The notes under the pieces are model-generated. The model had not been told where the DNA came from. It worked only from the letters and a program-made list of their open reading frames with translations, and did not search any database. A DNA stretch of 64,000 nt from Alkalimarinus alittae (lineage in GTDB: Bacteria; Pseudomonadota; Gammaproteobacteria; Pseudomonadales; Oleiphilaceae). Made by a program: the position numbers and the translations under genes. The stretch lies in assembly GCF_026016465.1 (NCBI RefSeq), contig NZ_CP100390.1, forward strand, positions 1,526,001-1,590,000, written 5' to 3'. Below, piece after piece: positions 1 through 14,510 of the stretch; position 1 is the stretch's first letter; every line of letters begins with the position of its first letter.

Positions 1-9
1 CTCAGTTAA
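1..9 (+). CDS. Possible 3' end of an upstream gene (partial)
   Basis: The first nine bases read Leu-Ser-stop in frame 1, and a well-placed AAGGA ribosome binding site and ATG follow 11 bases later. This spacing fits the end of another gene of the same operon, but three codons cannot prove it. Confidence 0.25.
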   Translation, partial: LS

Positions 10-20
10 GGAATTAGCAG

Positions 21-2786
21 ATGAACTCACACTTTGCTTTTTTACCCAGTTTTAAAACCCGTTTAGCTGCTGACGCAAAAGGGAATAATCGCAGCCAGTT
101 AACGCTATCATATGACCTCAAAATATCAGCCTCACCGGGTGCTTCATCTGCCGCTATAGGGTCAGATATTGCAATCACAGCGAACTTAAAAGGTCCTGGC
201 GATGTTGTATCAGTGTCGCCTGACCAAATTGCCAGAATAGAACCTCAGCAAGGTTTACGGGGTTTCGAACCTAACTATTTCCCCTTTGTTGAATTTGTAG
301 ATGTAGATTTTCCTTGGCGTTTTTCATTAGATAATGGTGTCTCTCGTCGTAATCGACCCTGGTTATCATTACTTGCGCTAAAACCTGACGAGTTTGACTT
401 TATTGATCAAGGGATGGGGCCACTGCCGCGTATACGGATTCATAGTGCTAGTCAGTCTTTACCTAACTTAAATGATGCATGGGCTACAGCCCACTCACAG
501 GTTAATTTGGCTGAGCAAGGCTCAAATGATCCGGTGGGTGTTTTAGCCGAGGATGAAGCTAGGGGCTTCTCTCGGTTGATGTGTTTTCGAAAGTTAGATC
601 CCCAGGTAGCGTACTATTTGTTTTTAGTGCCAAATTATCAGTGTGGCGTACTTGCTGGCATGGGGGCAGGGAACGTACTTGACGCAGGTTCAGCATCGGC
701 ATGGGATAGCAATTCGGGTGACGCGGTTACACTGCCGTTTTACCTGCAGTCTAGATTTAACACTAATGCATTGGAAGACCTTGAAGTGCTATTGCGTCGC
801 TTAACGGCATTCAAAGCAGATGGTGTCGACGAGGCTGGTGCAACAACTAAGATCTCAGCCGCTAATCCAGGGTATTATCTAGGTTATCAAAAACGAGGTG
901 CGCAGTTTGAGTTACAAGGGGCTTTAAAGCAACCAGGCAGTTTAGTAGAGCAATATAATACTGACACTGTACTGGCGTCAAAAATGGTTAATACTCTAAA
1001 AGAGAGAATCTCAGGCGAGCTAGAAGACCATGATGATGAAGACCCTCTCGTTTCATTTCCTGCTTATGGGCATCACTTCCGTCATGAAACAAGGGTGGTT
1101 GAAAGTAGAGCCAGGCAGAATAAATGGTTTGATCGAATCAACCTCGATTTAAAAATGCGCCAGGTCGCTGCACTGGGTGCAGAAACTGTTCGTAAAAACC
1201 AAGAAGAATTTTCAAAAATTTGCTGGCGACAATATAAAGATGTTTTAGAAGCAAATAAGCGTTTGGCGCGTTTAAGATTAGCCAAAGAGCTGACAGGCAA
1301 ACTGGTGCAAAAGCACTTTGTTAAATTACCTTCCGATGTTTCGTTAGTATTATCTGAGCCATTGCTGCCTTATATTGTCGATAGCAAAGGAAAAGCCATG
1401 CTGGATAATATTCGAAATAATGGCATACCCTCATCTTTTGCCAGCAGAAACCTTAGACGAATCTCTGCAAAGAGGCCTGTTCGTCAAACCACAAGTAATA
1501 ACAACCGAGAACTAAAAACAATTCCTTCACCTCAAATACCGGGTGATATGGCAGCCTCAAAAATATCTACTATTTCGCCAGGTATATTAAATACCGCTAT
1601 AAAACGTCGCCAAAGTATACTCTCTCATAAGGGGGTGAAAGGTGCACTGGGCCGTAGTCTTAAGAATATTTTAGGTGAAAATAGTTTTAATGGTGCTGTT
1701 CGGCCACGAACACTGGTGACACCCATTTCGCAATTTAGTAGCCACGAATATGTAAAAGAAATCTCAAATACGCTCTATGCATTACCAGAAGCCAAAGCCC
1801 GCTTTACTGTCTCAGGTTTAACTGATATTGAGAGAAAAAAGGTGGCGCCTGTTTACCGTTCACCTGTTGTCCCTCTTCCATTGGCTAACTATTTAACGGC
1901 GTTTTCAAAAGATAGTTTGTTACCGGGCGTATCTCATTTACCTAATAATACGGTGGCTATTTTTGATGAAAATCGAATGTTTATTGAGTCATTTATGGTC
2001 GGTGCTAACCATGCTATGAATGATGAGTTGCGCTGGCGTGAATACCCTACAGATATGCGAGGCACAATTTTTAGTCGGTTTTGGGATAGAGGCTTATTGC
2101 CAAGTGATGAAAGCGGTAATGATATTAAGCCTATTCATCAATGGGGAGGATTGCTCGGTAAAAATGATACGGCAAAAGCGAGTTCAACAGAAAATGCGTT
2201 AGTCGTGGTTATTCGAGGTGACGTGATTCGAAAATTAGGTTTACCGCTCGTTATGCTAAATGAGGCAAAAAATACAACCTGGAAGCAAGATGATAGCCCA
2301 CGGCATGAGCCTGCTTTTTTTGGGAAACTTGGGCAGGATGTCGCTTATTATGGGTTTGATGTACCACGAGATAGAGTGCTGTCTGATACACAAAAAGACA
2401 AAACATTCTTTGTTATTTATGAGCCCGTTGGTCAACTCAGATTTGGTTTAGATGTGGGCTCAGCACAAGTACGCATAGAGCGCCAAGCGTATTCAACGTT
2501 ACCGCTGCCGTTTCCTGTTGCTGCTTTAGGCCGAAGCTACAACCAAGTAAAAGCAAAACCGTTAGCTCCAGCGTTGGCGCCATCTTCGCATCCCCAAAAG
2601 TGGAGTGATCTTTCTTGGCGTCACGTTCAGCCATTAACGGGTTCGAACTATTTAAGGTTTAATAAAAATATACATATCTCAGGCGAGGCTGATTTGTGGG
2701 GAGGTAATAAAACATCGGCATCTATTGCTAGAGCTATGTGGCAAAAACCTATAGCCGCTGTTTTACCCTTGAAGAGGATTCTGTAA
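21..2786 (+). CDS. Large uncharacterised protein, first of a three-gene operon
   Basis: 921 aa with no family I can name. The start ATG follows an AAGGA Shine-Dalgarno. There is no signal peptide or membrane segment, so it is probably cytoplasmic. The most distinctive part is near the N terminus: an aromatic block EFVDVDFPWRFSL (residues 91-103) followed by RNRPWLSLLAL (110-120). A Lys/Arg-rich, low-complexity stretch lies at roughly 480-560. The stop codon overlaps the start of the next gene (TAATG), which indicates translational coupling. From memory, similar DFPWRF/RPWLSL motifs occur in large hypothetical proteins of scattered bacteria, encoded beside proteins like the next two; that recollection is unverified. 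A structural part of a big assembly is possible but is only inference. Confidence 0.85.
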   Translation: MNSHFAFLPSFKTRLAADAKGNNRSQLTLSYDLKISASPGASSAAIGSDIAITANLKGPGDVVSVSPDQIARIEPQQGLRGFEPNYFPFVEFVDVDFPWRFSLDNGVSRRNRPWLSLLALKPDEFDFIDQGMGPLPRIRIHSASQSLPNLNDAWATAHSQVNLAEQGSNDPVGVLAEDEARGFSRLMCFRKLDPQVAYYLFLVPNYQCGVLAGMGAGNVLDAGSASAWDSNSGDAVTLPFYLQSRFNTNALEDLEVLLRRLTAFKADGVDEAGATTKISAANPGYYLGYQKRGAQFELQGALKQPGSLVEQYNTDTVLASKMVNTLKERISGELEDHDDEDPLVSFPAYGHHFRHETRVVESRARQNKWFDRINLDLKMRQVAALGAETVRKNQEEFSKICWRQYKDVLEANKRLARLRLAKELTGKLVQKHFVKLPSDVSLVLSEPLLPYIVDSKGKAMLDNIRNNGIPSSFASRNLRRISAKRPVRQTTSNNNRELKTIPSPQIPGDMAASKISTISPGILNTAIKRRQSILSHKGVKGALGRSLKNILGENSFNGAVRPRTLVTPISQFSSHEYVKEISNTLYALPEAKARFTVSGLTDIERKKVAPVYRSPVVPLPLANYLTAFSKDSLLPGVSHLPNNTVAIFDENRMFIESFMVGANHAMNDELRWREYPTDMRGTIFSRFWDRGLLPSDESGNDIKPIHQWGGLLGKNDTAKASSTENALVVVIRGDVIRKLGLPLVMLNEAKNTTWKQDDSPRHEPAFFGKLGQDVAYYGFDVPRDRVLSDTQKDKTFFVIYEPVGQLRFGLDVGSAQVRIERQAYSTLPLPFPVAALGRSYNQVKAKPLAPALAPSSHPQKWSDLSWRHVQPLTGSNYLRFNKNIHISGEADLWGGNKTSASIARAMWQKPIAAVLPLKRIL

Positions 2787-5700
2787 TGCCAACAAAAAGA
2801 ATTAACCCTCGTAGAAGGGTTGTAAATAAAAAGCACCGAGTTCGTACTGGCGTTATTAACGCGGGGCGAGTTAATCCAAATTTGATTAACCCAGATTTAT
2901 TTAAGCCGATAGGGGCCATTAAAGGAAATGTTAAGGCATCTATTGAGGCTTCCCCATTGTTGTTGATGCCTATGAGATTAGAATATCGGGTTGTGGACAA
3001 CACAGAACAGTTAGATATGGTGGACTCAGGGGCTGACACTCAGAAAATTAAAAATGTATTGGCCATGGGGCAAGGTAATTCAATAAAAGTTAAAAAAGCG
3101 CGTGAAAGCGCTAAAAATGAAATGGCGAGCGAATTGAGAAACCAGCCCATTAAAAAAAGTAGGCTGCCTCATCGACGAAAAAGTGAAATATGGTTTCGTT
3201 GGTATACCGACGAAGCATTTACAACAAAAGGCATCGTCCCCGCAGATGATCAAGAGAAAGCGCTGATCAATCACTTTCTTTCACGTATTGGTCGTCACAA
3301 TTGGTGGGATACAAGTGTAGAAGAAGTGGCTTCTGGTTGGCAGTCATTAGCGAGCACTTTAGGGCCTCAGCGTGCCGTTCACCTTTTACGTTCTATAGCG
3401 GAGCGTCAGCCTGATAAACAGGATCAGAAAAGTTGGGAGTTAAACATAGGTCGTATTGCAGCACTTCCTCATACCGTTGAATTATTTGCGGTAAAAGGGG
3501 AGGTTATACAGTCTATTGGTCTGGGCAACAAGATAGAACAAAACACTGGCTCAGTTAGAAGTAAAGTGTCATATACATACGATGCCATAGATCTCGGTGG
3601 TTGGTTGTCTGATTTTGATACAGCCATTGAAAGTGGCATGGGGCTAAAGTTATCAGACCATAAGACGGTTAATGTAGCACTTAATGCTGATTGGATTATT
3701 GCGGTAGGGCTGCATTCAAAAGATGCAAAGGCTGAAGTTGAAAGCCTCCTTAAAGACCGAATAGCTAATGGTGAATTTGAGTTCTTGCCACAGGATACCC
3801 CAACAAATAATAGTGCAGGTGAACGAACCGTTCACTCTGATCCCAAGCTAGACTCACTAGCGTACTTAAACAAAGCAACTGACTATGAGCGTGGGGATGT
3901 AAATAAGCGTGCTCATTCCGCAGCGGGTTTATTATCGGAAGCATTAGGGCTGGAAGGGGGGAGTTTAGATCATGCTGTTAGGGCAGGAGATACTGCTTAC
4001 GAAGACGCCAAAGCCATGTTACAACTGATAGGACCTGCGCTTTTAGATGATGATGCAAACGGAAAAACATTTTTAAGTGGTGTCGACGAAAACAAGTTTA
4101 TTGAGGTACTGGCCTCATCTATTGTTGCTCGAGGTGTTTTTTCGCCTATTCGCTCAGGTCGAAATGCATACGGCATAACGGCAATGACAGATGTAAAAAA
4201 ACTGAGATTCGTAAATAGTGGCGATAATGGTGCGCATGCAATTAATAACTTTATACAGAGTGCCTCTTCCATTATTCGACATTTTGCGCCTTATCACGCA
4301 GACGAAGTCGTGCCTATATTGGAGCCTGATGATGCTTATGCTACAGACAAATTGGATGCTATTTTAAAAAGTAATCGTGTCTCAGTGCGTCTTGATGTGA
4401 CTGATGAAGGCAGTGATAACACTCGAGCGATAGGGTGCCCTTATGTAAGCGGTTCCAGAAGACGGCAGCGGCCAGAGGTGTACTTAAAAGAACTTAGAAC
4501 ATTGGCTTTAAACCGGCTTCCTGACCCTACTAGCCAAGATAGGGTTTGGCCTTTGCTGTATCGTCTGCTTCGCATATCGTTAACTAGAAATAGTTTATTA
4601 ACGCTCAGTAAAGTAAAACACGGCAGTAACGTGAAAAGCTTAAGGGACCTTGAAACCATTAAAGCCAAAGATAAACGGGCGATGATGCGTGATTACGGTA
4701 CTATCATGGGTAAGTCTGCTTCGGCGATTGCAGAACTCAGGCCTAACAGAAGTCATCGTATCCCTAAGCAGACATTGAGTTCTTTACGTAAAGCCAATAA
4801 GACGTTTTCGTCAGCATTAAGGCACCTTGAAACTATTGCCGCCAGGCCTGGAGGCAATGCGCAACTAGAAATTCTAATGATGGAAGTCGTCGACTTGTTT
4901 CAGCATCGGGTTGATGCTTGGGCAACAGGGCTTGCGTATTCTCGATTAAAAGAGAAGCGCGATACGGGGCAAGAAGGGTTGAGTGCGGGGTATTTTGGCT
5001 TTATCGGAAAACTACGAAGGACGTCTGTTTCAGGTAGCAGCGATGGCTATATTCAAGCACCCTCAATGGCTCAAGCCACTACAGCAGCAGTTCTAAGATC
5101 TGCTTACCTTCGTCAGAGAGAAAATGGTGCTTTTGCGATCAACCTTCGCTCCAATAGAGCGAGAAGGGCTCTTGCGTTACTTGACTTATTAAAGAAGGGC
5201 CTCACGGTAGGTGAAGCTCTAGGTCTGAGAGGTGAGCGCTTTCTTCATGACTTAAATAAAAGTTCGTTAATTCCCTTTATTCGTGAGCGGTTCCCTGTTG
5301 TAAATATGAACTCAAGCGCTGAATCAGAGGGTAAAGAGTCGCCAGCAGGTCGACGGGTATTTGATGGTTTAGCTTTTCTTGAATCCGTTATTTCATCACT
5401 CGCGGTTGGCGAAAACCGAAAACCTTTGTTAAGTCTTAGAAAGCAGCTTTATAACGATTTTGATGCGTTATCCGATTTAGTCATGGCTGAGGCTGTTCAT
5501 CAACGAGCGCAGGGTGCTGTTTCAGCTGCTAGTGCTTGGTTGCAAGTGCTGTCTGGCGGGCATATACCTGGCGAACCGGTATTCTTGAAGTGTCAGCGTC
5601 ATGGACAGGGGTCTAGCCATCGAGTCTCTATGATGCTTGAAGAGACAGAAATTACGGAGAATGACTCACTCAGAGCAGTCGCAGAACCCGCTATTGCGGC

Positions 5701-7324
5701 CTTAGCACAACAAGCACTATCAGGCTTTGATTCGGCTAATATTAACGTTCAGGTATCATCACTAGATAACCCTGAGGGTGCGTTATCAGTTGTTATGAAC
5801 CTGCGTTCTGACCTCGGTATAAGCCCTATTGATTTAGTGATTGGGGGTAAAAGTGAAATCGATATCAGGCTTCAAAATAGATTGCTTGAAAGTTGGCTAC
5901 GAAACCCTGCTATGGGCGATCATTTAGGATTAACTCTTGAGCGTTTTTTTTCAAATGAACTAAATATTGAGTTTGATTTTAGTGTTGGTTCGACCAGCGT
6001 TGCATCACTTTTAGATAAAGCAGACCTACTCCGCGGGGTTATTCAAAAAGGGCGGGCTATTGAACCGGCAGATATCAATGCTGCTGCGTTACCAGAGCAT
6101 ACATTAACCGAACAAACTGAAGTTCAAACTATAGCAGGTGCGGTAGTCAAATTAAGGCATCGTGCGAATACAATGCTCAACCGTTTAAGCCATGATATCA
6201 ATCAATTAACAGTCTGTCGGCGACAGTTTGTTCAAACTATTGACGTGGCTTCGGAGTTACTTAAAAGCGGTGTCCATGACTCTGAAATTGGGTTGGCTTT
6301 AAATCGTGCGGAACTTAAGCGAAGAGCATTAACCGATATTCTAACTCATGCTTCATCATGGTCTGAGCCATCAGCATTAAGACCAATTTTACTTCAGGAG
6401 GCGATATCCGACACGGGGCAAATTGAAGAGCATCTCATTGAGCTAGAAAGACGACTTGCAAAGCGGCGGTCTAAATTAATGTCGGCTTTATCTGAAACCT
6501 CGAGCTCTGCCGCTCAAGCGGTATCTGATGCTAGAAAAGCATTGAATACATTAGTCTCTGCCATTTCGGGTGCTTTAGATGGTGATGCGCTTAAAATATT
6601 GCCGCCTTATCCGCGTGATAATGCATTAAACCCAGAATTGTCTGGCGCTAGTTCTGTTAAAGGCACGTTAAAGGATTGGGCTGCCGTTCGAGGGCTTATT
6701 TCAAAAGCGAGTGCGTTGCTAGATTTGCTACCTTCTATGCAGGCTTTTAGTGTTTCTGATGCTGCGACGGGTGCAGATGATATTAGTGAAGACGCGGATC
6801 AAAGAAGTGAAAAGGAAGCGCCGAGGTCACGCCATTTTGGTGTAATGATTGGAGAAGAGTTCACAGTGAAGCGTTCAGCTACTGCACTGGGCTTTGTCGT
6901 TGATGAATGGTCAGAGCAGCGCCCTGCAGACCATCAGGCTGCTGCTTTAGCAATTAATTATGACACTCCTCAAGCTGAGTCGCCCCATTGTCTTTTGCTC
7001 TGCGTACCCCCTGACGACTCATTGAAAAGATGGACCCCCCAGAATGCTTCTAACATGGTATTTGAAGCGATTTCTTGGATGAAAATTAGAGCATTACCCA
7101 CTACGGATAAAGTAACGCCTGCTGCCTTGTTACCCCAAGCAAACCAAGTTGCTTACAAAAAAATGGGTGCAAAATCATTATCACGTATCCCCAAGCAGCG
7201 CTTTAGTTTCCCTAGTAAGGCATGGTTTGAATCAGATGCATCGTTTGTAGTGCGTGATAAGACTGGAACAGCACCAGAAGCGGTCCACCAGCGTAACGGT
7301 TTTTTCCGTATTAAGGAGCAATAA
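2786..7324 (+). CDS. Very large uncharacterised protein, second of the three-gene operon
   Basis: 1512 aa when started at the ATG overlapping the previous stop, with GAAGAGG as ribosome binding site; an in-frame ATG 48 bases upstream is inside the preceding gene and is less likely. The N terminus is strongly basic (MPTKRINPRRR...). Notable stretches are LLLMPMRLEYRVV (about 58-70) and EIWFRWYTDEAF (about 134-145). Residues about 1120-1290 are rich in charged heptad-like sequence suggesting helical or coiled-coil segments. No signal peptide, transmembrane helix, P-loop or nuclease motif was noticed. Its function is unknown. Its size, its coupling to both neighbours and the absence of enzymatic motifs are compatible with a scaffold, but nothing proves this. 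Confidence 0.87.
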   Translation: MPTKRINPRRRVVNKKHRVRTGVINAGRVNPNLINPDLFKPIGAIKGNVKASIEASPLLLMPMRLEYRVVDNTEQLDMVDSGADTQKIKNVLAMGQGNSIKVKKARESAKNEMASELRNQPIKKSRLPHRRKSEIWFRWYTDEAFTTKGIVPADDQEKALINHFLSRIGRHNWWDTSVEEVASGWQSLASTLGPQRAVHLLRSIAERQPDKQDQKSWELNIGRIAALPHTVELFAVKGEVIQSIGLGNKIEQNTGSVRSKVSYTYDAIDLGGWLSDFDTAIESGMGLKLSDHKTVNVALNADWIIAVGLHSKDAKAEVESLLKDRIANGEFEFLPQDTPTNNSAGERTVHSDPKLDSLAYLNKATDYERGDVNKRAHSAAGLLSEALGLEGGSLDHAVRAGDTAYEDAKAMLQLIGPALLDDDANGKTFLSGVDENKFIEVLASSIVARGVFSPIRSGRNAYGITAMTDVKKLRFVNSGDNGAHAINNFIQSASSIIRHFAPYHADEVVPILEPDDAYATDKLDAILKSNRVSVRLDVTDEGSDNTRAIGCPYVSGSRRRQRPEVYLKELRTLALNRLPDPTSQDRVWPLLYRLLRISLTRNSLLTLSKVKHGSNVKSLRDLETIKAKDKRAMMRDYGTIMGKSASAIAELRPNRSHRIPKQTLSSLRKANKTFSSALRHLETIAARPGGNAQLEILMMEVVDLFQHRVDAWATGLAYSRLKEKRDTGQEGLSAGYFGFIGKLRRTSVSGSSDGYIQAPSMAQATTAAVLRSAYLRQRENGAFAINLRSNRARRALALLDLLKKGLTVGEALGLRGERFLHDLNKSSLIPFIRERFPVVNMNSSAESEGKESPAGRRVFDGLAFLESVISSLAVGENRKPLLSLRKQLYNDFDALSDLVMAEAVHQRAQGAVSAASAWLQVLSGGHIPGEPVFLKCQRHGQGSSHRVSMMLEETEITENDSLRAVAEPAIAALAQQALSGFDSANINVQVSSLDNPEGALSVVMNLRSDLGISPIDLVIGGKSEIDIRLQNRLLESWLRNPAMGDHLGLTLERFFSNELNIEFDFSVGSTSVASLLDKADLLRGVIQKGRAIEPADINAAALPEHTLTEQTEVQTIAGAVVKLRHRANTMLNRLSHDINQLTVCRRQFVQTIDVASELLKSGVHDSEIGLALNRAELKRRALTDILTHASSWSEPSALRPILLQEAISDTGQIEEHLIELERRLAKRRSKLMSALSETSSSAAQAVSDARKALNTLVSAISGALDGDALKILPPYPRDNALNPELSGASSVKGTLKDWAAVRGLISKASALLDLLPSMQAFSVSDAATGADDISEDADQRSEKEAPRSRHFGVMIGEEFTVKRSATALGFVVDEWSEQRPADHQAAALAINYDTPQAESPHCLLLCVPPDDSLKRWTPQNASNMVFEAISWMKIRALPTTDKVTPAALLPQANQVAYKKMGAKSLSRIPKQRFSFPSKAWFESDASFVVRDKTGTAPEAVHQRNGFFRIKEQ

Positions 7325-7325
7325 C

Positions 7326-8651
7326 ATGCCTCAGAGTAAGGTAAAGTCACAGCAACTCCATGCCTCTAATGTTTCATCTCGTATTGGGGAGGCTTTAGAG
7401 GCTAGAGTTAAAGACCCTTTGTGGTTTCTGGCTCGGCAGTGGCAAACAGGCGAGTTTTCTGCAGAGAATGGGGGGCGCCCAGCCCAAATAGCGGTTGATT
7501 CCAAAATATATCCATTTCAGTCAGTTAATGTTGGCAATAAAAATAAACCCATTAAACCTGATGTGCCGTTGGAATCAGTGGTTGAAGCAGAGACAGATTC
7601 TGGGGATGCGCCTGCCTGGCAATCGGAGGCATTAGAATACCGTTTTAAGCTTAAATCACTGAAACATCATTTTACTGTTTCAGAGTACGACGGACGGTTT
7701 TTAGATTGGAGTCATTTCTCGTATTCAGGCCCTGCTTCTGGCGCTACACCGTCTGAGGTCTCACAGCGTGTTACACCCACGCAATTATACTTTCAGGGGG
7801 CTCCACACCCTCGTTGGTGGCGGCTAGAGGAGGGCGATGTATATTTTGATTCACCAAAAGACCCGGAGCAAAATGCACTCTCTTTATTACTGCCGGAGTT
7901 TTTTTATACAGACATAAATAATTGGTACACCTTACCGCTGTCTATGCCTTCAGGGTCGTTAAGAGAGATTACAGATGTAACAGTAATAGATAGCTTTGGC
8001 GTAATTACATCGCTAAACCCTGTCGTAGACAGTAACGAAGAGGCTGATTGGGCTTTATTTGCACAAGATCATGAAGACGCTGATTTGGGAGAATCCTTAA
8101 ATGGCCGTTATTTATTAGCCCCTAATACAGCCATTGATATTGTTCAAAATGATGAAATTGAAGAAGTTCGATTTATCAGGGATGAAGATGCAAATCTCGT
8201 ATGGGCATGGGAACGACGCATGGTGAACGAGCAAGGGCAAACCGAGACGACTGTTTCAGAGCAGGTTGGGGGGGGTGATATGCATCGCTCTATTGATGGT
8301 TTGCCTCAGTTTAAGCTTAAGTCGGCCACTGCACGTCACTGGATACCTTATGTACCGAGACACAATAGTGAGCGCCCAGAAGCGGATGGGGCGTTTCACT
8401 TACGGCGAGCTCGTACAGACGAGCAAGCGTCCCAAAGTAACCCTCAGTATAGGACGCAAATTGTAAAAGAGTCTAAGCGTATCTTCGAAGAAGAAATTAC
8501 GCCAACAGGGATAAGGGTGAGAAGGATTGCTAGGTTTTCACGGGGGTCTGATGGAAAAGCATATTTCTGGATTGGCCGAGATAAGGAAGTAGCACAACGC
8601 ACCGCGAGACCTGGCTTAAGTTTTGATTATATCTCGGACAATGACACTTAA
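7326..8651 (+). CDS. Uncharacterised protein with DPLWFLARQWQ motif, third of the operon
   Basis: 441 aa. The ATG at 7326 lies one base after the previous stop and follows AGGAG, so it is preferred over an upstream in-frame start inside the previous gene. The N-terminal third carries the conspicuous sequence DPLWFLARQWQTGEF (residues 30-44), followed by a Gly-rich turn; a second Trp-rich patch, HPRWWRLEEGDVYFD, sits near residue 160. No signal peptide or membrane helix is seen. It closes the operon, converging on the LysE-family gene after 26 bases. The family is not recognised. I recall the LWFLARQWQ motif only from hypothetical proteins. Confidence 0.86.
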   Translation: MPQSKVKSQQLHASNVSSRIGEALEARVKDPLWFLARQWQTGEFSAENGGRPAQIAVDSKIYPFQSVNVGNKNKPIKPDVPLESVVEAETDSGDAPAWQSEALEYRFKLKSLKHHFTVSEYDGRFLDWSHFSYSGPASGATPSEVSQRVTPTQLYFQGAPHPRWWRLEEGDVYFDSPKDPEQNALSLLLPEFFYTDINNWYTLPLSMPSGSLREITDVTVIDSFGVITSLNPVVDSNEEADWALFAQDHEDADLGESLNGRYLLAPNTAIDIVQNDEIEEVRFIRDEDANLVWAWERRMVNEQGQTETTVSEQVGGGDMHRSIDGLPQFKLKSATARHWIPYVPRHNSERPEADGAFHLRRARTDEQASQSNPQYRTQIVKESKRIFEEEITPTGIRVRRIARFSRGSDGKAYFWIGRDKEVAQRTARPGLSFDYISDNDT

Positions 8652-8682
8652 TGCTTAGATGACTGAGTGCATAAACATTAAG
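8647..8682. terminator. Possible bidirectional terminator hairpin between convergent genes
   Basis: CTTAATG at 8647-8653 pairs with CATTAAG at 8676-8682, and an inner CTTAG/CTGAG stem is possible. It overlaps both stop regions and has no long U-tract, so it is weakly supported. Confidence 0.3.
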
Positions 8683-9286
8683 CTGACACAATAATCTTAG
8701 CCGCTAAAGCAATCAATATAATGCCAAATATTCGTTCTAACCAATGGCTATAGCGTTGTAATCCGCTCAACCATTTAGGACGGGAAAACAACCATGCGAC
8801 AGTGACATACCACCCCATATCAATGATCATAGCGGTAAAGGCATAAATAAATTTGGCGATTAGTGGTGTTTCTGGCCCTACTATTTGACTAAATAGGGCA
8901 ATAAAAAAGATTGCGGCTTTAGGGTTTAAACAGGCCATCAGAAACCCATCGCGGGCGGCATTGGAAGCGTTATTTACAGTGATTTGAGGGTTTATAATGG
9001 TCGCTTTTTTACGTAAACCTTGAAAGCCTAACCATGCTAAAAACAACGCACCGCCCCACTGAATCGCAATAAATACGTTGGGTAAATTATGAATAACCGC
9101 GGCCAAGCCAACAACCGATAATACGGCGTAGATACCTACTCCTAAGCCATGGAATATACCGGTAATCATACCCTGCTGACGTCCGCCGTTTAACGTGTGC
9201 TTTAACACCAAGGCTAAGGAGGGGCCGGGTGACATCGCGCCGAGTAAACAAATGCTCACAACGGTTAACCAAATTGAAAGTGTCAT
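8678..9286 (-). CDS. LysE/RhtB-family amino-acid exporter
   Basis: 202 aa, the usual length for this family. The N terminus SICLLGAMSPGPSLALVLKHTL contains the typical MSPGP signature after the first helix. About six hydrophobic segments follow, including VGIYAVLSVVGLAAVI, LFLAWLGFQGLRKK and a C-terminal IFGIILIALAAKII. Members export amino acids or related small metabolites across the inner membrane; the substrate cannot be read from sequence. It lies 28 bases downstream of the secreted-protein gene on the same strand and may be read from the same message. No clear Shine-Dalgarno is visible. Confidence 0.9.
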   Translation of the reverse strand: MTLSIWLTVVSICLLGAMSPGPSLALVLKHTLNGGRQQGMITGIFHGLGVGIYAVLSVVGLAAVIHNLPNVFIAIQWGGALFLAWLGFQGLRKKATIINPQITVNNASNAARDGFLMACLNPKAAIFFIALFSQIVGPETPLIAKFIYAFTAMIIDMGWYVTVAWLFSRPKWLSGLQRYSHWLERIFGIILIALAAKIIVSA

Positions 9287-9314
9287 AATGTTAGTTGTCT
9301 TTATAGGCTAAATG

Positions 9315-10334
9315 TTAAGGCGCGTTATTCGCGTCGATATTAAATTCATTAAAATTCAGGGCATGATCATCGGATAAGAACGTTATACTTTTAGGGGTTA
9401 CACGAAAAAAACCATGGTTTAACCACATTCGAATCTTCACTGTCTCTTCTTGTGGGTTTTTCATATTCAGAATTATTTCACCGCTGAGCGCAACCGAGAC
9501 ATGGTTAGATCCATAATCCTGGAGGTGGTTTTGTAACTCGAGGTGATCATAAAGGTTGATTAAATCGATAGACTCAAAACTAAGGTCTTGGAAGTTTTTA
9601 AATCTATCTTCTTGCAGGGGGTTAAACGCTGTAGGGCTATTGGCCAAGTATAACGCCAGTGCGTGTAAAATCTTTGGTTGTTGCTGTTGAATGATTTCTT
9701 TAGCTTGGTTTACCGCAGTCTGGTAAGGAAGTTGTAAATTACATGGGCTTTTCACAGCCGTATAAGGGGTCACATACTGCACATCGGCCTCGTCGCCATT
9801 ATCTTGCGTTATATTGCTCAGGTCACATTGTAGAGCTATTTCACCTTGAGTATAAGCGTTCATTACAGGCGTCACGTGTTCTGCGTTGGTGCGAATCATA
9901 TACTCGTCTAAGCCACTTAATTCCCCCATTGTACGGTAATTGCGTTTACTGTTTAGCCAAACATCTATCGGTTGAGGTGTGTCCTCTGGAAATGCCGTTA
10001 TTGTTTGTGGAATGACGGTTTCATGGGGGAGTAGGCGGCCAAATAGCATGAACTTTACGGCTTCAGAAAAGTAAAACCGTCCTTGTTCATCGGTATAGGT
10101 TTTGTCTTTATAATCTTTATTGGCCCAAGTGAAATGATAGCTCCGTTCTACTTTGACGCCCTCAAGAGGCTTGCCCTGTTTGGATAGTTGCCCTCTCACA
10201 GCAGAAAATAACGAAACATTAAGGCCTTTATTAGCGTCTTTAAAATTGAGGGAGGGTGCTATTTTTTCTGCTGCCATACTGCTACCTAACCAAAAGAGAA
10301 GCGTTAACCCAAGTATTAACTGTTGTGCCATCAT
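9315..10334 (-). CDS. Secreted protein with carboxypeptidase-like regulatory domain
   Basis: 339 aa beginning MMAQQLILGLTLLFWLG and ending its signal peptide near SSMAAEK, so it should be exported; there is no lipobox. Residues about 35-110 (SLFSAVRGQLSKQGKPLEGV ... TYTDEQGRFYFSEA) look like the carboxypeptidase-regulatory/DUF6795 beta-sandwich, a domain that usually has no catalysis of its own. The rest is an unassigned periplasmic region with a few cysteines. The second ATG (10331) is an equally possible start. Function unknown; it is probably co-transcribed with the downstream LysE-type exporter. Confidence 0.75.
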   Translation of the reverse strand: MMAQQLILGLTLLFWLGSSMAAEKIAPSLNFKDANKGLNVSLFSAVRGQLSKQGKPLEGVKVERSYHFTWANKDYKDKTYTDEQGRFYFSEAVKFMLFGRLLPHETVIPQTITAFPEDTPQPIDVWLNSKRNYRTMGELSGLDEYMIRTNAEHVTPVMNAYTQGEIALQCDLSNITQDNGDEADVQYVTPYTAVKSPCNLQLPYQTAVNQAKEIIQQQQPKILHALALYLANSPTAFNPLQEDRFKNFQDLSFESIDLINLYDHLELQNHLQDYGSNHVSVALSGEIILNMKNPQEETVKIRMWLNHGFFRVTPKSITFLSDDHALNFNEFNIDANNAP

Positions 10335-11358: not shown

Positions 11359-11388
11359 CTTAAGCCTTTTATTGGCTTGAGCTTTTTT
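11359..11388 (+). terminator. Terminator-like hairpin between cbtB and cbtA
   Basis: CTTAAGCC (11359-11366) pairs with GGCTTGAG (11374-11381, one G-U) over a seven-base loop and is followed by C and six T residues. It has the form of an intrinsic terminator but lies inside the predicted cbtBA operon, so it may attenuate rather than stop transcription. Confidence 0.55.
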
Positions 11389-11404
11389 GCTGTTGGAGTT
11401 TTGT

Positions 11405-12175
11405 ATGGTTTTTCGCCGCATTATCTTTAATGCCGTGTTTATTGGCTTGGCTGCTGGTTTATTATTGAGTTTGATACAGGTTATTGGTGTGTCGCCTATT
11501 ATTTTTGAGGCTGAGACGTTTGAGGTGGTTGAAGAGGCTCCCGCTGCTGCGGCTCATGACCACCATGGGGTTGAAGAAAGTAGTGGGCATCATCATGATG
11601 CAGAAGCTTGGGCGCCAGAAGATGGCGCCGAAAGAACACTCTACACCGTTGCGTCTAACGTATTGGCGGGTATAGGCTTTGCGTCCGTAGTACTTGCCTT
11701 GATGAGTCAGTTGCAGTTGCAAGGTATCACTCAGGTTAATGTTCAAAAAGGGTTGCTGTGGGGACTTGCAGGTTTTGCCGTCTTCTTTGTGGCGCCTGGT
11801 ATTGGTTTACCGCCTGAAATACCGGGTACAGAAGCAGCAGTGATTGAGAATCGCCAACTATGGTGGCTATTCGCAGTTGTTTGCGCGGCTATTGGTTTGG
11901 CTGTGATGGCTTTTGCTCCGATCAAGCTTAAGATCTTGGGAGCACTGAGCATTGCCTTACCTTATATTGTTGGCGCCCCGCATGTTGATGGCCCTGAGTT
12001 TGCTCACCCAGACCCTGCGGCTGTTGCTAGCCTTACTGAATTACACTTTCAGTTTATTATGGCTAGTGGTATCGCTAATCTTATTTTCTGGATCGTATTG
12101 GGGATTGCTTGTGCATGGGCGCTTAATCTCTGGGTACATAAGGATATAGATGCTCATGTCAGCTCTGCTGCCTAA
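11405..12175 (+). CDS. cbtA: CbtA, cobalt transporter membrane subunit
   Basis: 256 aa starting at the ATG preceded by TTGGAG. Five or so hydrophobic helices are visible: FNAVFIGLAAGLLLSLIQVI, LAGIGFASVVLALMS, GLLWGLAGFAVFFVAPGIGL, WLFAVVCAAIGLAVMAF and a C-terminal IANLIFWIVLGIACAWAL. Between helices 1 and 2 is a His/Glu-rich loop (HDHHGVEESSGHHHDAEAW) suited to metal capture. The GLPPEIPGTE segment is typical of CbtA. It probably forms a cobalt importer with CbtB. Its 3' end overlaps the following chelatase gene by 26 bases, so cobalt uptake and insertion are translationally linked. Confidence 0.92.
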   Translation: MVFRRIIFNAVFIGLAAGLLLSLIQVIGVSPIIFEAETFEVVEEAPAAAAHDHHGVEESSGHHHDAEAWAPEDGAERTLYTVASNVLAGIGFASVVLALMSQLQLQGITQVNVQKGLLWGLAGFAVFFVAPGIGLPPEIPGTEAAVIENRQLWWLFAVVCAAIGLAVMAFAPIKLKILGALSIALPYIVGAPHVDGPEFAHPDPAAVASLTELHFQFIMASGIANLIFWIVLGIACAWALNLWVHKDIDAHVSSAA

Positions 12176-13904
12176 GTTTCCTTTTTCTGCTGTTGCAGGC
12201 CAAGCGTCATTTAAAATGGCGCTGGTGCTAGCGGCCATCAACCCCGCTATTGGTGGTGTGCTTGTAAGTGGCCCGCGTGGCTCAGCTAAATCTACATTAG
12301 CTAGGGGTTTGGCGGATATTCTGCCCGTTGAAGCGCATATACAACACCCATTTGTAACGCTGCCTTTAGGTGCCAGTGAAGAGATGCTGGTCGGCACACT
12401 CGATCTTCAGCAGGTGCTTAACGAGCAACAAGTCGCTTTTTGTCCTGGTTTATTAGCTAAGGCTGACGGTGGGGTGTTGTACGTAGATGAGGTTAACTTA
12501 TTGCCCGATACTTTGGTTGATTTGTTGCTCGATGTTGCGGCCAGTGGTGTCAACTGTGTAGAGCGTGACGGTATTAGCCACAGTCATCAATCTAACTTTA
12601 TTTTGTTAGGGACTATGAACCCTGATGAAGGCGAGTTACGGCCTCAATTACAAGATCGATTTGGTCTGGCGGTTGAGCTGGATAATCAATACAGCATTGA
12701 AGAACGTATTGAGATAGTTCGTTTGCGCGAAGCGTTCGATACATCACCGCAAGCGTTTATTAATAATTATGCTGAGCAACAGCAAGAGATAACTGACGGT
12801 ATTGCTCAGGCGCGAGAATGTTTAGCTGATGTGAGTTGTTCTGATACCTTACGTAAATTGATAGCGGAACGTTGCTATGCAGCCAATGTCGATGGCTTAA
12901 GGGCAGATATTGTTTGGTATCGTGCCGCCATAGCGCATGCCGCATGGCAGCAACGGAAATGCGTTACCGAAGCGGATGTGCTCGCCGTAGAAGAGTTGGT
13001 GCTCAGTCACCGCCGGAAGCCATCATCCAATAAGCAACCGCCTATGCCTCCACAAACTCAAAAGCCTTTTACCCGCCCGCCTGAGCCTCCCGGTGCAGCT
13101 AGTGATCAGCAAAAAGAACTTCCCCCCGAGACCGATAAAAAGCCTGCTGGGGACTGGGGAAGTATGGCGCCTGTTCAGCAACAAACCGCTGAAATGAGCG
13201 AGCTATCTCTGCCTTTGCGAGATGGCATCTCAAGCAAGGTCGGCTTTGCTTCATGGAAAAGCGTGGTGTCTAAAAAATTAGGTGCGGTCATGGGGGGCGT
13301 AAATCGGGGTCGTCAAATGAGTGCTAAGCCTGATTGGTTTGCTACTTTATTGGCTAATGCCGGACAATGGCCTCCTAAAACGGTGCGATATCGTAAAGCT
13401 AAAACCGGAAAACCGGTCTTGCATTTGGTATTGTTAGATACGTCTGCTTCAACGCTTCAAAATAATCTTTTTAGTCAAGCTAAAGCGGCGATTTTAAGCA
13501 TTGCTAATCAAGCGTATCTAGACAGAGAGCAGTTGACTATTTTAGGGTTTGGTAATGAGCAAGTTGAAACCTTGCTGCCGCGTGTGCGCGCACCAAAAGC
13601 CTTAAGAGAAATGTTGAATGGCATTCCCGCGTCGGGTGGTACGCCACTGCGTGAAGTGTTGTTGCAGGCTAATCAATATCAACAACGACTGTTGAGATCG
13701 ATGCCGGAATTATCTATTCGTACCTATTTGATTACAGACGGTAAAACAACTCAGTCGTTTGATGATGTGAGTTTGTTTGGCAGCACTATCGTAATCGATA
13801 TTGAGCAGTCTACGGTTAAACGAGGTAAAGGGAAGTTAATAGCAGAGGCGCTAAGAGCTGATTATTTTTCCCTCCCGTCTATTTGCCAGCCATTGGCGCA
13901 ATAG
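12150..13904 (+). CDS. Fused ChlI-ChlD type chelatase ATPase/VWA subunit
   Basis: 584 aa. The N-terminal AAA+ domain has Walker A GPRGSAKS (41-48) and Walker B GGVLYVDEVNLL (107-118); a Pro/Gln-rich linker follows (about 290-350); the C terminus is a von Willebrand A domain with MIDAS motif DTSAS (430-434). This is the ChlI/BchI plus ChlD/BchD fold in one chain. In organisms lacking CobS/CobT, such proteins are thought to energise CobN for cobalt insertion, and cobN lies in this locus. ATG 12150 is chosen because AAGGA is 6 bases upstream; ATG 12156 is possible. A magnesium chelatase is unlikely because no bacteriochlorophyll genes are present. Confidence 0.87.
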   Translation: MLMSALLPKFPFSAVAGQASFKMALVLAAINPAIGGVLVSGPRGSAKSTLARGLADILPVEAHIQHPFVTLPLGASEEMLVGTLDLQQVLNEQQVAFCPGLLAKADGGVLYVDEVNLLPDTLVDLLLDVAASGVNCVERDGISHSHQSNFILLGTMNPDEGELRPQLQDRFGLAVELDNQYSIEERIEIVRLREAFDTSPQAFINNYAEQQQEITDGIAQARECLADVSCSDTLRKLIAERCYAANVDGLRADIVWYRAAIAHAAWQQRKCVTEADVLAVEELVLSHRRKPSSNKQPPMPPQTQKPFTRPPEPPGAASDQQKELPPETDKKPAGDWGSMAPVQQQTAEMSELSLPLRDGISSKVGFASWKSVVSKKLGAVMGGVNRGRQMSAKPDWFATLLANAGQWPPKTVRYRKAKTGKPVLHLVLLDTSASTLQNNLFSQAKAAILSIANQAYLDREQLTILGFGNEQVETLLPRVRAPKALREMLNGIPASGGTPLREVLLQANQYQQRLLRSMPELSIRTYLITDGKTTQSFDDVSLFGSTIVIDIEQSTVKRGKGKLIAEALRADYFSLPSICQPLAQ

Positions 13905-13916
13905 TGAGAATTTTTT

Positions 13917-14510
13917 ATGTCTGATAGTAGCCATAAGACACGCATGGAACGAAAAAAAGCGGTCATTGATGCCAAAATTGCCAAAGCCACTGAAGAGCGT
14001 GGCGTACTGATTTTATTAAAAGGCAACGGCAAAGGTAAAAGTAGCTCGGCGTTTGGAACCATGGCGAGATCAGTCGGGCATGGTAAGCGTTGCGCAGTTA
14101 TACAGTTTATCAAAGGCCGCACAGAAACAGGGGAATTCAAATTATTTAAAGACCATCCCCTTGTAGATTGGCATGTAATGGGACACGGATTTACCTGGGA
14201 AACACGCGACAAAGCGCAAGATATTGCTGCGGCTCAAAAAGCCTGGTCTATAGCTGAAGATCTACTGCAAGATGACCGCTACGATATGTTGGTCTTTGAT
14301 GAAATGGGCTATATGTTTAAATACGATTATCTAGATGTTGCCCCTGTGGTAGAGGCTTTAAAAAGCCGGCCCAAAAACCAAAACGTGATTATCACGGGTC
14401 GTACAATGGCAACAGCGTTGCAAGATATTGCAGATACGATCTCTATTGTTCAAGACGAACGTCATGCTTTTCGCTTGGGCGTTAAAGCACAACAGGGCAT
14501 TGAATACTAA
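13917..14510 (+). CDS. cobO: Cob(I)yrinic acid a,c-diamide adenosyltransferase
   Basis: 197 aa, standard for CobO/BtuR. The P-loop GNGKGKSS is at 36-43 and the C-terminal part has LVFDEMGYMFKYDYLD. The enzyme transfers the 5'-deoxyadenosyl group from ATP to the cob(I)alamin precursor. It starts 12 bases after the chelatase stop, and its own stop overlaps the start of the next gene (TAATG), so it is coupled to CobB. Confidence 0.95.
   Translation: MSDSSHKTRMERKKAVIDAKIAKATEERGVLILLKGNGKGKSSSAFGTMARSVGHGKRCAVIQFIKGRTETGEFKLFKDHPLVDWHVMGHGFTWETRDKAQDIAAAQKAWSIAEDLLQDDRYDMLVFDEMGYMFKYDYLDVAPVVEALKSRPKNQNVIITGRTMATALQDIADTISIVQDERHAFRLGVKAQQGIEY

What the first reader, a model, noticed from the sequence alone, without database searches (positions are those of the whole stretch)
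1..8651. Operon of three giant, unassigned proteins with shared Trp/Arg-rich motifs
Seen: 921, 1512 and 441 aa genes are coupled by a stop-start overlap and a one-base gap, each with a good ribosome binding site, and the operon continues leftwards out of the window. None shows a signal peptide, membrane helix or enzyme motif. Each carries a striking aromatic block (DFPWRFSL and RPWLSLLAL; EIWFRWYTDEAF; DPLWFLARQWQ and RWWRLEEGD). Inference: three large soluble proteins made together suggest a multi-protein assembly of unknown type. Similar motifs recalled from hypothetical proteins elsewhere point to a widespread undescribed cassette.
Basis: partly seen in the sequence, partly recalled or inferred. 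Interest (0 to 1): 0.65.

Follow-up and report, generated by a model that had tools for sequence, protein, structure and literature searches.

The report
Giant-protein operon with a swappable enzyme
Four giant proteins with no known function are encoded together in hundreds of bacteria and archaea, next to an enzyme gene (protease, lipase, phosphatase and others) that is replaced by a different one from species to species, which points to an undescribed molecular machine that carries or controls interchangeable enzymes.

Summary
In detail: three intact, tightly coupled genes of 921 (A), 1512 (B) and 441 aa (C), with no match in Pfam, NCBIfam, PHROGs or PADLOC. The operon continues left of the window: A is preceded by a 1170-aa DUF6603 protein and an S8 subtilase. 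A scan of 84,980 species genomes confirmed 544 stretches encoding C, from Proteobacteria to haloarchaea and a Lokiarchaeon. In the 80 loci kept, B adjoins C in essentially all; all 65 such genomes searched also carry DUF6603. The usual order is DUF6603-A-B-C, rarely permuted; nothing downstream is conserved. New finding: the gene just upstream of DUF6603 is a swappable enzyme: PhoD phosphatase, S8, trypsin-like, M64, M14, M15 or M23 peptidase, PLD, patatin, a GDSL-lipase fusion, GH-like protein or deaminase. At least 23 switches are needed on the C tree, some between cores about 70% identical. Unrelated S8 and trypsin-like enzymes share a C-terminal domain, a candidate docking tag. DUF6603 is predicted as a huge amphipathic beta-meander (closest folds: porins, ApoB100). 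Best reading: a soluble carrier complex for interchangeable enzymes, probably used in conflict. The genetic architecture is shown; the mechanism is inferred.

The parts
1..17 (+). Last 17 bases of the DUF6603 gene (1170 aa; whole gene at genome C1:1522505-1526017 = L002:11505-15017, mostly left of the window; core protein 1). It is itself preceded, wholly outside the window, by the enzyme-slot gene of this copy: an S8 subtilase of 362 aa at genome C1:1521389-1522477 (L002:10389-11477)
   Evidence: PF20248 E 9.4e-106 and Peptidase_S8 E 1.1e-20; only DUF6603 copy in the genome; best solved relatives of the S8 are intracellular subtilisins, E 1.4e-7
21..2786 (+). Protein A, 921 aa; core protein 2
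   Evidence: 75 relatives cover more than 80% of its profile; alignment A3
354..380 (+). A motif RPWLSLLAL (residues 112-120; P113, W114 and L117 invariant)
1980..2087 (+). A motif FIESFMVGANHAMNDELRWREYPTDMRGTIFSRFWD (about residues 654-689), the strongest conserved block of A
   Evidence: G661, E669, W672, F687, W688 invariant
2786..7324 (+). Protein B, 1512 aa; core protein 3; start overlaps the stop of A by one base
3185..3220 (+). B motif EIWFRWYTDEAF (R138 and D142 invariant)
7326..8651 (+). Protein C, 441 aa; core protein 4; last conserved gene of the cassette
   Evidence: nothing conserved downstream
7413..7454 (+). C motif DPLWFLARQWQTGE (residues 30-43), family signature used for the genome scan
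7812..7829 (+). C motif RWWRLE (residues 163-168; R163 and W165 nearly or fully invariant, E168 invariant)

Best explanation
A modular enzyme-carrier cassette. Four core proteins (DUF6603, A, B, C) are made from one operon and most likely assemble into one large soluble complex. A fifth gene, directly upstream of DUF6603, supplies an interchangeable enzyme: here an S8 subtilase, elsewhere a phosphatase, lipase, phospholipase, other peptidase, glycosidase-like protein or deaminase. Proposed working: the enzyme is held by the core, in part through C-terminal docking domains; DUF6603, a long amphipathic beta-sheet resembling porins and ApoB, gives the complex a lipid- or membrane-binding or inserting surface; A, B and C keep it soluble and set its target; the enzyme is thereby brought to a membrane or cell envelope, most likely that of a competitor. 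SHOWN: cassette, linkage, conservation, enzyme swapping, shared C-terminal domain. PREDICTED: DUF6603 fold, solubility. INFERRED: physical complex, docking role, membrane action, use in conflict.
For: Core linkage: order DUF6603-A-B-C in nearly all loci whose held sequence reaches that far, in Actinomycetota, Bacteroidota, Pseudomonadota, Acidobacteriota, Nitrospirota, Cyanobacteriota, Myxococcota, Gemmatimonadota, Halobacteria and others. PF20248 in 65 of 65 C-bearing genomes searched and 0 of 14 controls. A few permuted orders (L042, L053, L094, L023) keep the set together. Slot: typically 0-11 bp from DUF6603 or a short overlap; at least ten unrelated enzyme families, many peptidases, lipases and wall hydrolases, plus a Bd3614-type deaminase, a family known from toxins. 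Swapping: at least 23 type changes among 57 labelled cores (shuffled labels: mean 31.6, minimum 27, so partly inherited), with M14, PLD and trypsin types on cores 69-75% identical in C; two genomes carry two cassettes with different slot genes (L134/L157, L156/L140). A C-terminal domain of about 120 aa is shared by S8 and trypsin-like slot proteins and, among 19,691 ORF entries of the fetched loci, was found only there. DUF6603 model: about 30 long strands with one hydrophobic face (mean KD 2.1 against -0.8; difference 2.9, shuffled strands 1.2), best VIA matches porins and ApoB100, Z 14.7. Extracellular-type inserts (LTD, FG-GAP, B_lectin, PG_binding_1) in some members.
Against: No direct evidence of a complex, of export or of toxicity. 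No secretion signal, membrane anchor, AAA+ motor or dedicated immunity gene is conserved; the own S8 lacks the shared C-terminal domain. DUF6603 matches have large rmsd (7-12 A) and no Foldseek hit reaches E 0.001. Sheath genes are absent from the own genome, so no known injector is implied.
Confidence: 0.4

Rival explanations
1. Intracellular defence (abortive infection) system: the core senses phage or foreign DNA and releases an interchangeable hydrolase that damages the cell itself.
For: Effectors such as trypsin-like, patatin, PLD, subtilase and deaminase recur in known defence systems (general knowledge; PADLOC 'subtilase' E 5.7e-8 on the own S8, RT-Protease models on L152). No signal peptides. 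Sits in a tRNA-Pro-adjacent variable region and often on plasmids.
Against: No core protein of this copy matches PADLOC. No NTPase, nucleotidyltransferase or nucleic-acid-binding family found in any core protein. Wall hydrolases (M15, M23, GH-like) and PhoD are poor suicide effectors in the cytosol. The PADLOC hits are generic enzyme-family matches.
Confidence: 0.22
2. Housekeeping lipid or envelope machine: DUF6603 is a bridge-like lipid-binding trough (like VPS13, AsmA or ApoB) and the enzyme modifies lipids or envelope polymers.
For: DUF6603 beta-meander with a hydrophobic face, ApoB100 and LptD among fold matches. DUF6603 proteins of about 3250 aa with a weak A relative downstream exist. 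PhoD is the commonest slot enzyme; PLD, patatin and GDSL also occur.
Against: Patchy distribution: DUF6603 in 9 of 398 genomes of the window's phylum; C absent from 57 relatives. Frequent swapping of chemistry is unlike housekeeping. No membrane anchor. Proteases and deaminases are hard to fit.
Confidence: 0.18
3. The slot enzyme is a maturation protease of the giant core proteins.
For: The own slot gene and many others encode peptidases.
Against: The commonest slot type is the PhoD phosphatase; PLD, patatin, GH-like and deaminase types cannot process proteins.
Confidence: 0.06
4. Payload and accessory proteins of extracellular contractile injection particles encoded elsewhere in the genome.
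For: A sheath gene (PF04984) in 22 of 33 cassette genomes against 17 of 100 genomes of the window's phylum; many of the former lie in frames of 500-800 aa, longer than the roughly 400-aa frames usual in the latter; the taxonomic spread resembles that of eCIS (PMC8213781).
Against: No sheath in the own genome, Halobaculum, Tropicibacter and eight others; no close linkage (42 and 78 kb in two cases, otherwise other contigs); the comparison is not matched for taxonomy or genome size.
Confidence: 0.07

Closest known systems
DUF6603 (Pfam PF20248)
   Same: One of the four core proteins is a clear member (E 9.4e-106).
   Different: Pfam gives no function; the constant association with A, B, C and the enzyme slot is in no paper held; A, B and C have no family.
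Polymorphic toxin / effector-module systems (T6SS, eCIS, polymorphic toxins)
   Same: Constant machinery plus a frequently replaced enzymatic module; similar chemistry (peptidoglycan, lipid and protein hydrolases, deaminase).
   Different: No tail, sheath, Rhs, PAAR, AAA+ or immunity gene in the cassette; the enzyme is a separate gene first in the operon, not a fused C-terminus.
Defence systems with exchangeable effectors (CBASS, Avs)
   Same: Exchangeable effector, patchy spread, plasmid and island location.
   Different: No PADLOC match for any core protein tested; no sensor NTPase or nucleotide signal found.
Bridge-like lipid-transfer / apolipoprotein B beta-sheets and outer-membrane beta-barrels
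   Same: DUF6603 predicted as a long antiparallel amphipathic meander; ApoB100 and porins are the best structural matches (Z 14.7).
   Different: No sequence kinship; no signal peptide; present in Gram-positives and archaea; rmsd 7-12 A.

Membership tests
DUF6603 (PF20248) | Profile match above the curated cut-off (27 bits) | tested here: met
   354.8 bits for the protein just left of A
Peptidase S8 (subtilase) | Profile match and catalytic motifs | tested here: met
   PF00082 74.5 bits. By eye HPDTGY, GHGTHTG and GTSYAT are present, but the usual oxyanion-hole Asn of AAGN reads Gln (AAGQG); activity untested
Extracellular contractile injection system | Sheath (PF04984) in the locus or genome | tested here: not met
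   No sheath in the own genome; no known family in A, B or C
Known anti-phage defence system (PADLOC) | Core protein models present | tested here: not met
   A, B, C and DUF6603 have no PADLOC match; only the generic subtilase model hits the enzyme
Polymorphic toxin system | Variable enzymatic module beside constant machinery | tested here: met
   Variability shown; toxicity itself untested
Polymorphic toxin system | Cognate immunity gene and a recognised export route | tested here: inconclusive
   An Imm11-family gene lies 1.35 kb upstream of the own S8 start (L002:8444-9037), beyond an IS66 remnant; no export signal; no neighbour downstream of C is conserved
Outer-membrane beta-barrel / lipid-transfer beta-sheet (for DUF6603) | Fold match | tested here: inconclusive
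   Porins and ApoB100 Z 14.7 with rmsd 7-9 A; no Foldseek E below 0.001

The most novel reading that the evidence does not exclude
A previously undescribed class of prokaryotic molecular machine, spread over Bacteria and Archaea including an Asgard archaeon, in which four giant proteins form a membrane-active soluble particle that delivers an exchangeable enzyme, recruited in part by a docking domain, without any phage-tail or membrane-embedded apparatus.
Probability: 0.3. Interest if true: 0.95.

Novelty: categorically new. Interest (0 to 1): 0.74.

Why it matters
If right, hundreds of species across both prokaryotic domains share a machine that has no described function and whose enzymes are exchanged readily between close relatives, a pattern usual for biological conflict. 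It would open a new effector-carrier system with a natural way of changing cargo. Even under the rival readings it gives three protein families of 400-1500 aa, now called hypothetical, a common context and a testable set of partners.

Tried and rejected
Phage origin: one partial relative of C in 2.9 million viral contigs and one unverified faecal contig; rejected. Vertical inheritance in the window's own clade: C absent from 57 relatives, so probably acquired laterally. Shared ancestry of A and C, and of A and DUF6603: no profile similarity. Sequence relatives with solved structures: none for A, B, C or DUF6603. Fold match for C: none with Foldseek E up to 0.001 in PDB and VIA Z at most 2.6; the one BFVD hit under 0.001 has probability 0.16 and TM 0.07, read as chance. 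Conserved gene downstream of C: none. Literature by DUF6603, PF20248, the C motif or the enzyme set: no paper on this cassette. Promoter and terminator scans were uninformative. DUF6603 as a cassette-only marker: rejected, since giant DUF6603 proteins of about 3250 aa occur in genomes where the C search found nothing. Slot enzyme not identified at L131, L154, L155, L163, L184, L015; no coupled gene seen at L144, L149, L192; L173 not resolved.
Full report
WHAT IS THERE. The window is C1:1526001-1590000 of a complete 4.25-Mb genome. Reading left of the window shows what the operon begins with: an S8 subtilase (L002:10389-11477, 362 aa from the ATG that has an RBS) and a 1170-aa DUF6603 protein (L002:11505-15017) whose stop codon is at window 15-17, 3 bases before A. 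A, B and C have no Pfam, NCBIfam, PHROGs or PADLOC family, and scans of relatives of B (Pfam) and A (NCBIfam) add only one lectin insert in one B. All are predicted soluble, without signal peptides.

WHERE IT SITS. The region begins at the 3' end of a tRNA-Pro gene (L002:7228-7304): alignments with four congeners (84-89% identical) stop at L002:7308-7314. A truncated IS66 transposase and an Imm11-family gene lie between the tRNA and the S8. C is absent from 57 relatives. This looks like a laterally acquired cassette at a tRNA-side variable site; the right edge was not pinned down.

IT IS WIDESPREAD AND KEPT TOGETHER. A tblastn of C against plasmids found relatives in Streptomyces, Nocardia, Rhizobium, Paraburkholderia, Gemmatirosa and four haloarchaea; apart from an orphan C in L012, every plasmid neighbourhood examined holds DUF6603, A, B and C in that order (in Rhizobium and Halobellus A and B are split into several genes). 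A scan of 84,980 species genomes with the C alignment gave 570 pattern matches, of which 544 encode C. This is a lower bound, since one short motif was used. The best 80 loci come from Actinomycetota, Bacteroidota, Pseudomonadota, Acidobacteriota, Nitrospirota, Cyanobacteriota, Myxococcota, Chloroflexota, Verrucomicrobiota, Ignavibacteria, an anammox planctomycete, Halobacteria and a Lokiarchaeon. With iterated profiles, 40 loci read DUF6603-A-B-C and 30 read A-B-C (DUF6603 beyond the flank); a few are permuted (B-C-A-X-DUF6603 in L053 and L094; L042; L023). PF20248 was then found in all 65 C-bearing genomes searched and in none of 14 control genomes. No gene downstream of C recurs. Preserved grouping across phyla, even when the order changes, is the evidence that the four work together.

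THE SWAPPABLE GENE. I fetched the sequence upstream of DUF6603 for more than 60 loci. The gene directly before DUF6603, typically 0-11 bp away or overlapping, is in most loci an enzyme, but a different one: PhoD-like phosphatase (commonest), S8 subtilase, M64 peptidase, trypsin-like (NAL1-type) peptidase, PLD, M23, M14, M15, patatin, Rv2525c glycoside-hydrolase-like, a GDSL-lipase/trypsin/endonuclease-phosphatase fusion in Roseovarius lutimaris, a serine beta-lactamase-like protein and a Bd3614-type deaminase. Nocardia has an S8 directly downstream of C instead. On the tree of C, 57 labelled cores need at least 23 changes among 11 types; shuffled labels need 31.6 on average and at least 27. 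So type is partly inherited and often replaced. M14, PLD and trypsin types sit on cores 69-75% identical in C; GH-like and PhoD on 64%; M64 and S8 on 77%. The three nearest relatives of this cassette (41-49% identity in C) carry a GH-like protein (L019), the triple fusion (L025) and an unidentified gene (L020) in place of the S8. Two genomes have two cassettes with different slot genes (Nitrospira LK70: PhoD and PLD; a Lewinella: PhoD and an M23-type relative). The tree is a quick one with some long branches; the count is parsimony, and the M23 label of L196 rests on homology to L151 only.

A CANDIDATE DOCKING DOMAIN. Slot proteins with unrelated catalytic domains, S8 (L132, L137, L138, L182, L183) and trypsin-like (L014 twice, L130, L146, L166, L174, L176), share a domain of about 120 residues, nearly always at the very C-terminus. 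An iterated profile finds it, among 19,691 ORF entries of all loci fetched by then, only in genes just upstream of the cassette, L013 included. It has not been searched for outside these loci. It would be a natural tag for loading the enzyme on the core; that is inference. The S8 of the present window lacks it, as do the PhoD, M64 and other types.

STRUCTURE. C was predicted with 62 sequences (mean pLDDT 80.6): a mostly beta protein without a convincing match in PDB or among viral proteins. DUF6603 (relative L019, 27 sequences) is predicted confidently only between about residues 150 and 710: some 30 antiparallel strands, mostly of 10-17 residues, in one long meander. Strands have one hydrophobic and one polar face (KD 2.1 and -0.8; difference 2.9 against 1.2 for shuffled strands, maximum 1.8). 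Foldseek's best hits are LptD, pilus ushers, porins, VDAC and ApoB100, none below E 0.001; VIA-align gives porins and ApoB100 Z 14.7 with rmsd 7-9 A over 240-260 residues. I read this as a porin-like or apolipoprotein-like amphipathic sheet, hence a lipid- or membrane-facing element, with moderate confidence. It lacks an export signal and occurs in organisms without an outer membrane, so it is not an ordinary outer-membrane protein.

A WIDER FAMILY. In 398 genomes of the window's phylum PF20248 occurs in 9. Some are giant proteins of about 3250 aa followed by a weak A relative and another large gene, without recognisable C. DUF6603 plus A may be the oldest pair, and a second, divergent cassette type may exist.

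HOW IT LIKELY WORKS. Shown: constant four-gene core, translationally coupled, predicted soluble, with an exchangeable enzyme gene beside DUF6603. Inferred: one complex in which DUF6603 provides the membrane contact, A-C the body and targeting, and the enzyme the activity. Enzyme exchange, the deaminase, wall and lipid hydrolases, plasmid and tRNA-island locations, and extracellular-type inserts (LTD, FG-GAP, B_lectin, PG_binding) in some members favour use against other cells. Absence of signal peptides and of any injector leaves the route open: release by lysis, an unknown exporter, or intracellular action (the defence rival). Sheath genes occur in 22 of 33 cassette genomes against 17 of 100 unmatched genomes of the window's phylum, but not in this genome, so contractile particles are at most a partial association.

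NOVELTY. No held paper names DUF6603 or PF20248, and no search on enzyme sets found this cassette. Papers outside the open library were not searchable. The core is unlike every family tested; the logic (constant machine, variable enzyme) is known from toxin and defence systems. I rate the system categorically new in its parts, with function unproven.

Noticed in passing
L002:7228-7304 and 7308-10300 (genome C1:1518228-1521300): tRNA-Pro (ggg) side variable region: congeners diverge just after the tRNA; a truncated IS66 transposase (L002:9162-9548) and an Imm11-family gene (L002:8444-9037) precede the cassette.
   Followed up: partly
L002:10389-11477: The subtilase shows intact-looking Asp/His/Ser motifs, but the oxyanion-hole Asn position reads Gln (AAGQG); it has no prodomain and is nearest to intracellular subtilisins.
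   Followed up: partly
L211:2230-11982, L214:2062-11886, L215:3113-13666: Giant proteins of about 3250-3500 aa with repetitive amphipathic beta sequence ending in DUF6603; in L211 and L214 a weak relative of A follows. A possible second, divergent cassette type.
   Followed up: partly
L160:10574-11968: Slot gene encoding a Bd3614-like deaminase (E 9e-13) in a Saprospiraceae genome that has a second cassette.
   Followed up: no
L152:2425-5148 (minus strand), Roseovarius lutimaris: A slot protein fusing a GDSL lipase, a trypsin-like peptidase and an endonuclease/exonuclease/phosphatase domain.
   Followed up: no
cassette genomes (G450-G506): Contractile-tail sheath in 22 of 33 cassette genomes against 17 of 100 genomes of the window's phylum; taxonomy not matched.
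   Followed up: partly
L011 (MT835531.1): A record deposited as 'Bacteriophage sp.' from human faeces carries the A-B-C cassette; probably a bacterial contig mislabelled as phage.
   Followed up: no
L022 (Roseovarius gaetbuli): B and C are broken into several frames: a decaying copy at a contig end.
   Followed up: no
window 11387-14510: Downstream of the cassette and two minus-strand genes lies what looks like an ordinary cobalamin-related cluster (CbtA-like, Mg-chelatase-like, CobO-like), judged by eye only.
   Followed up: no
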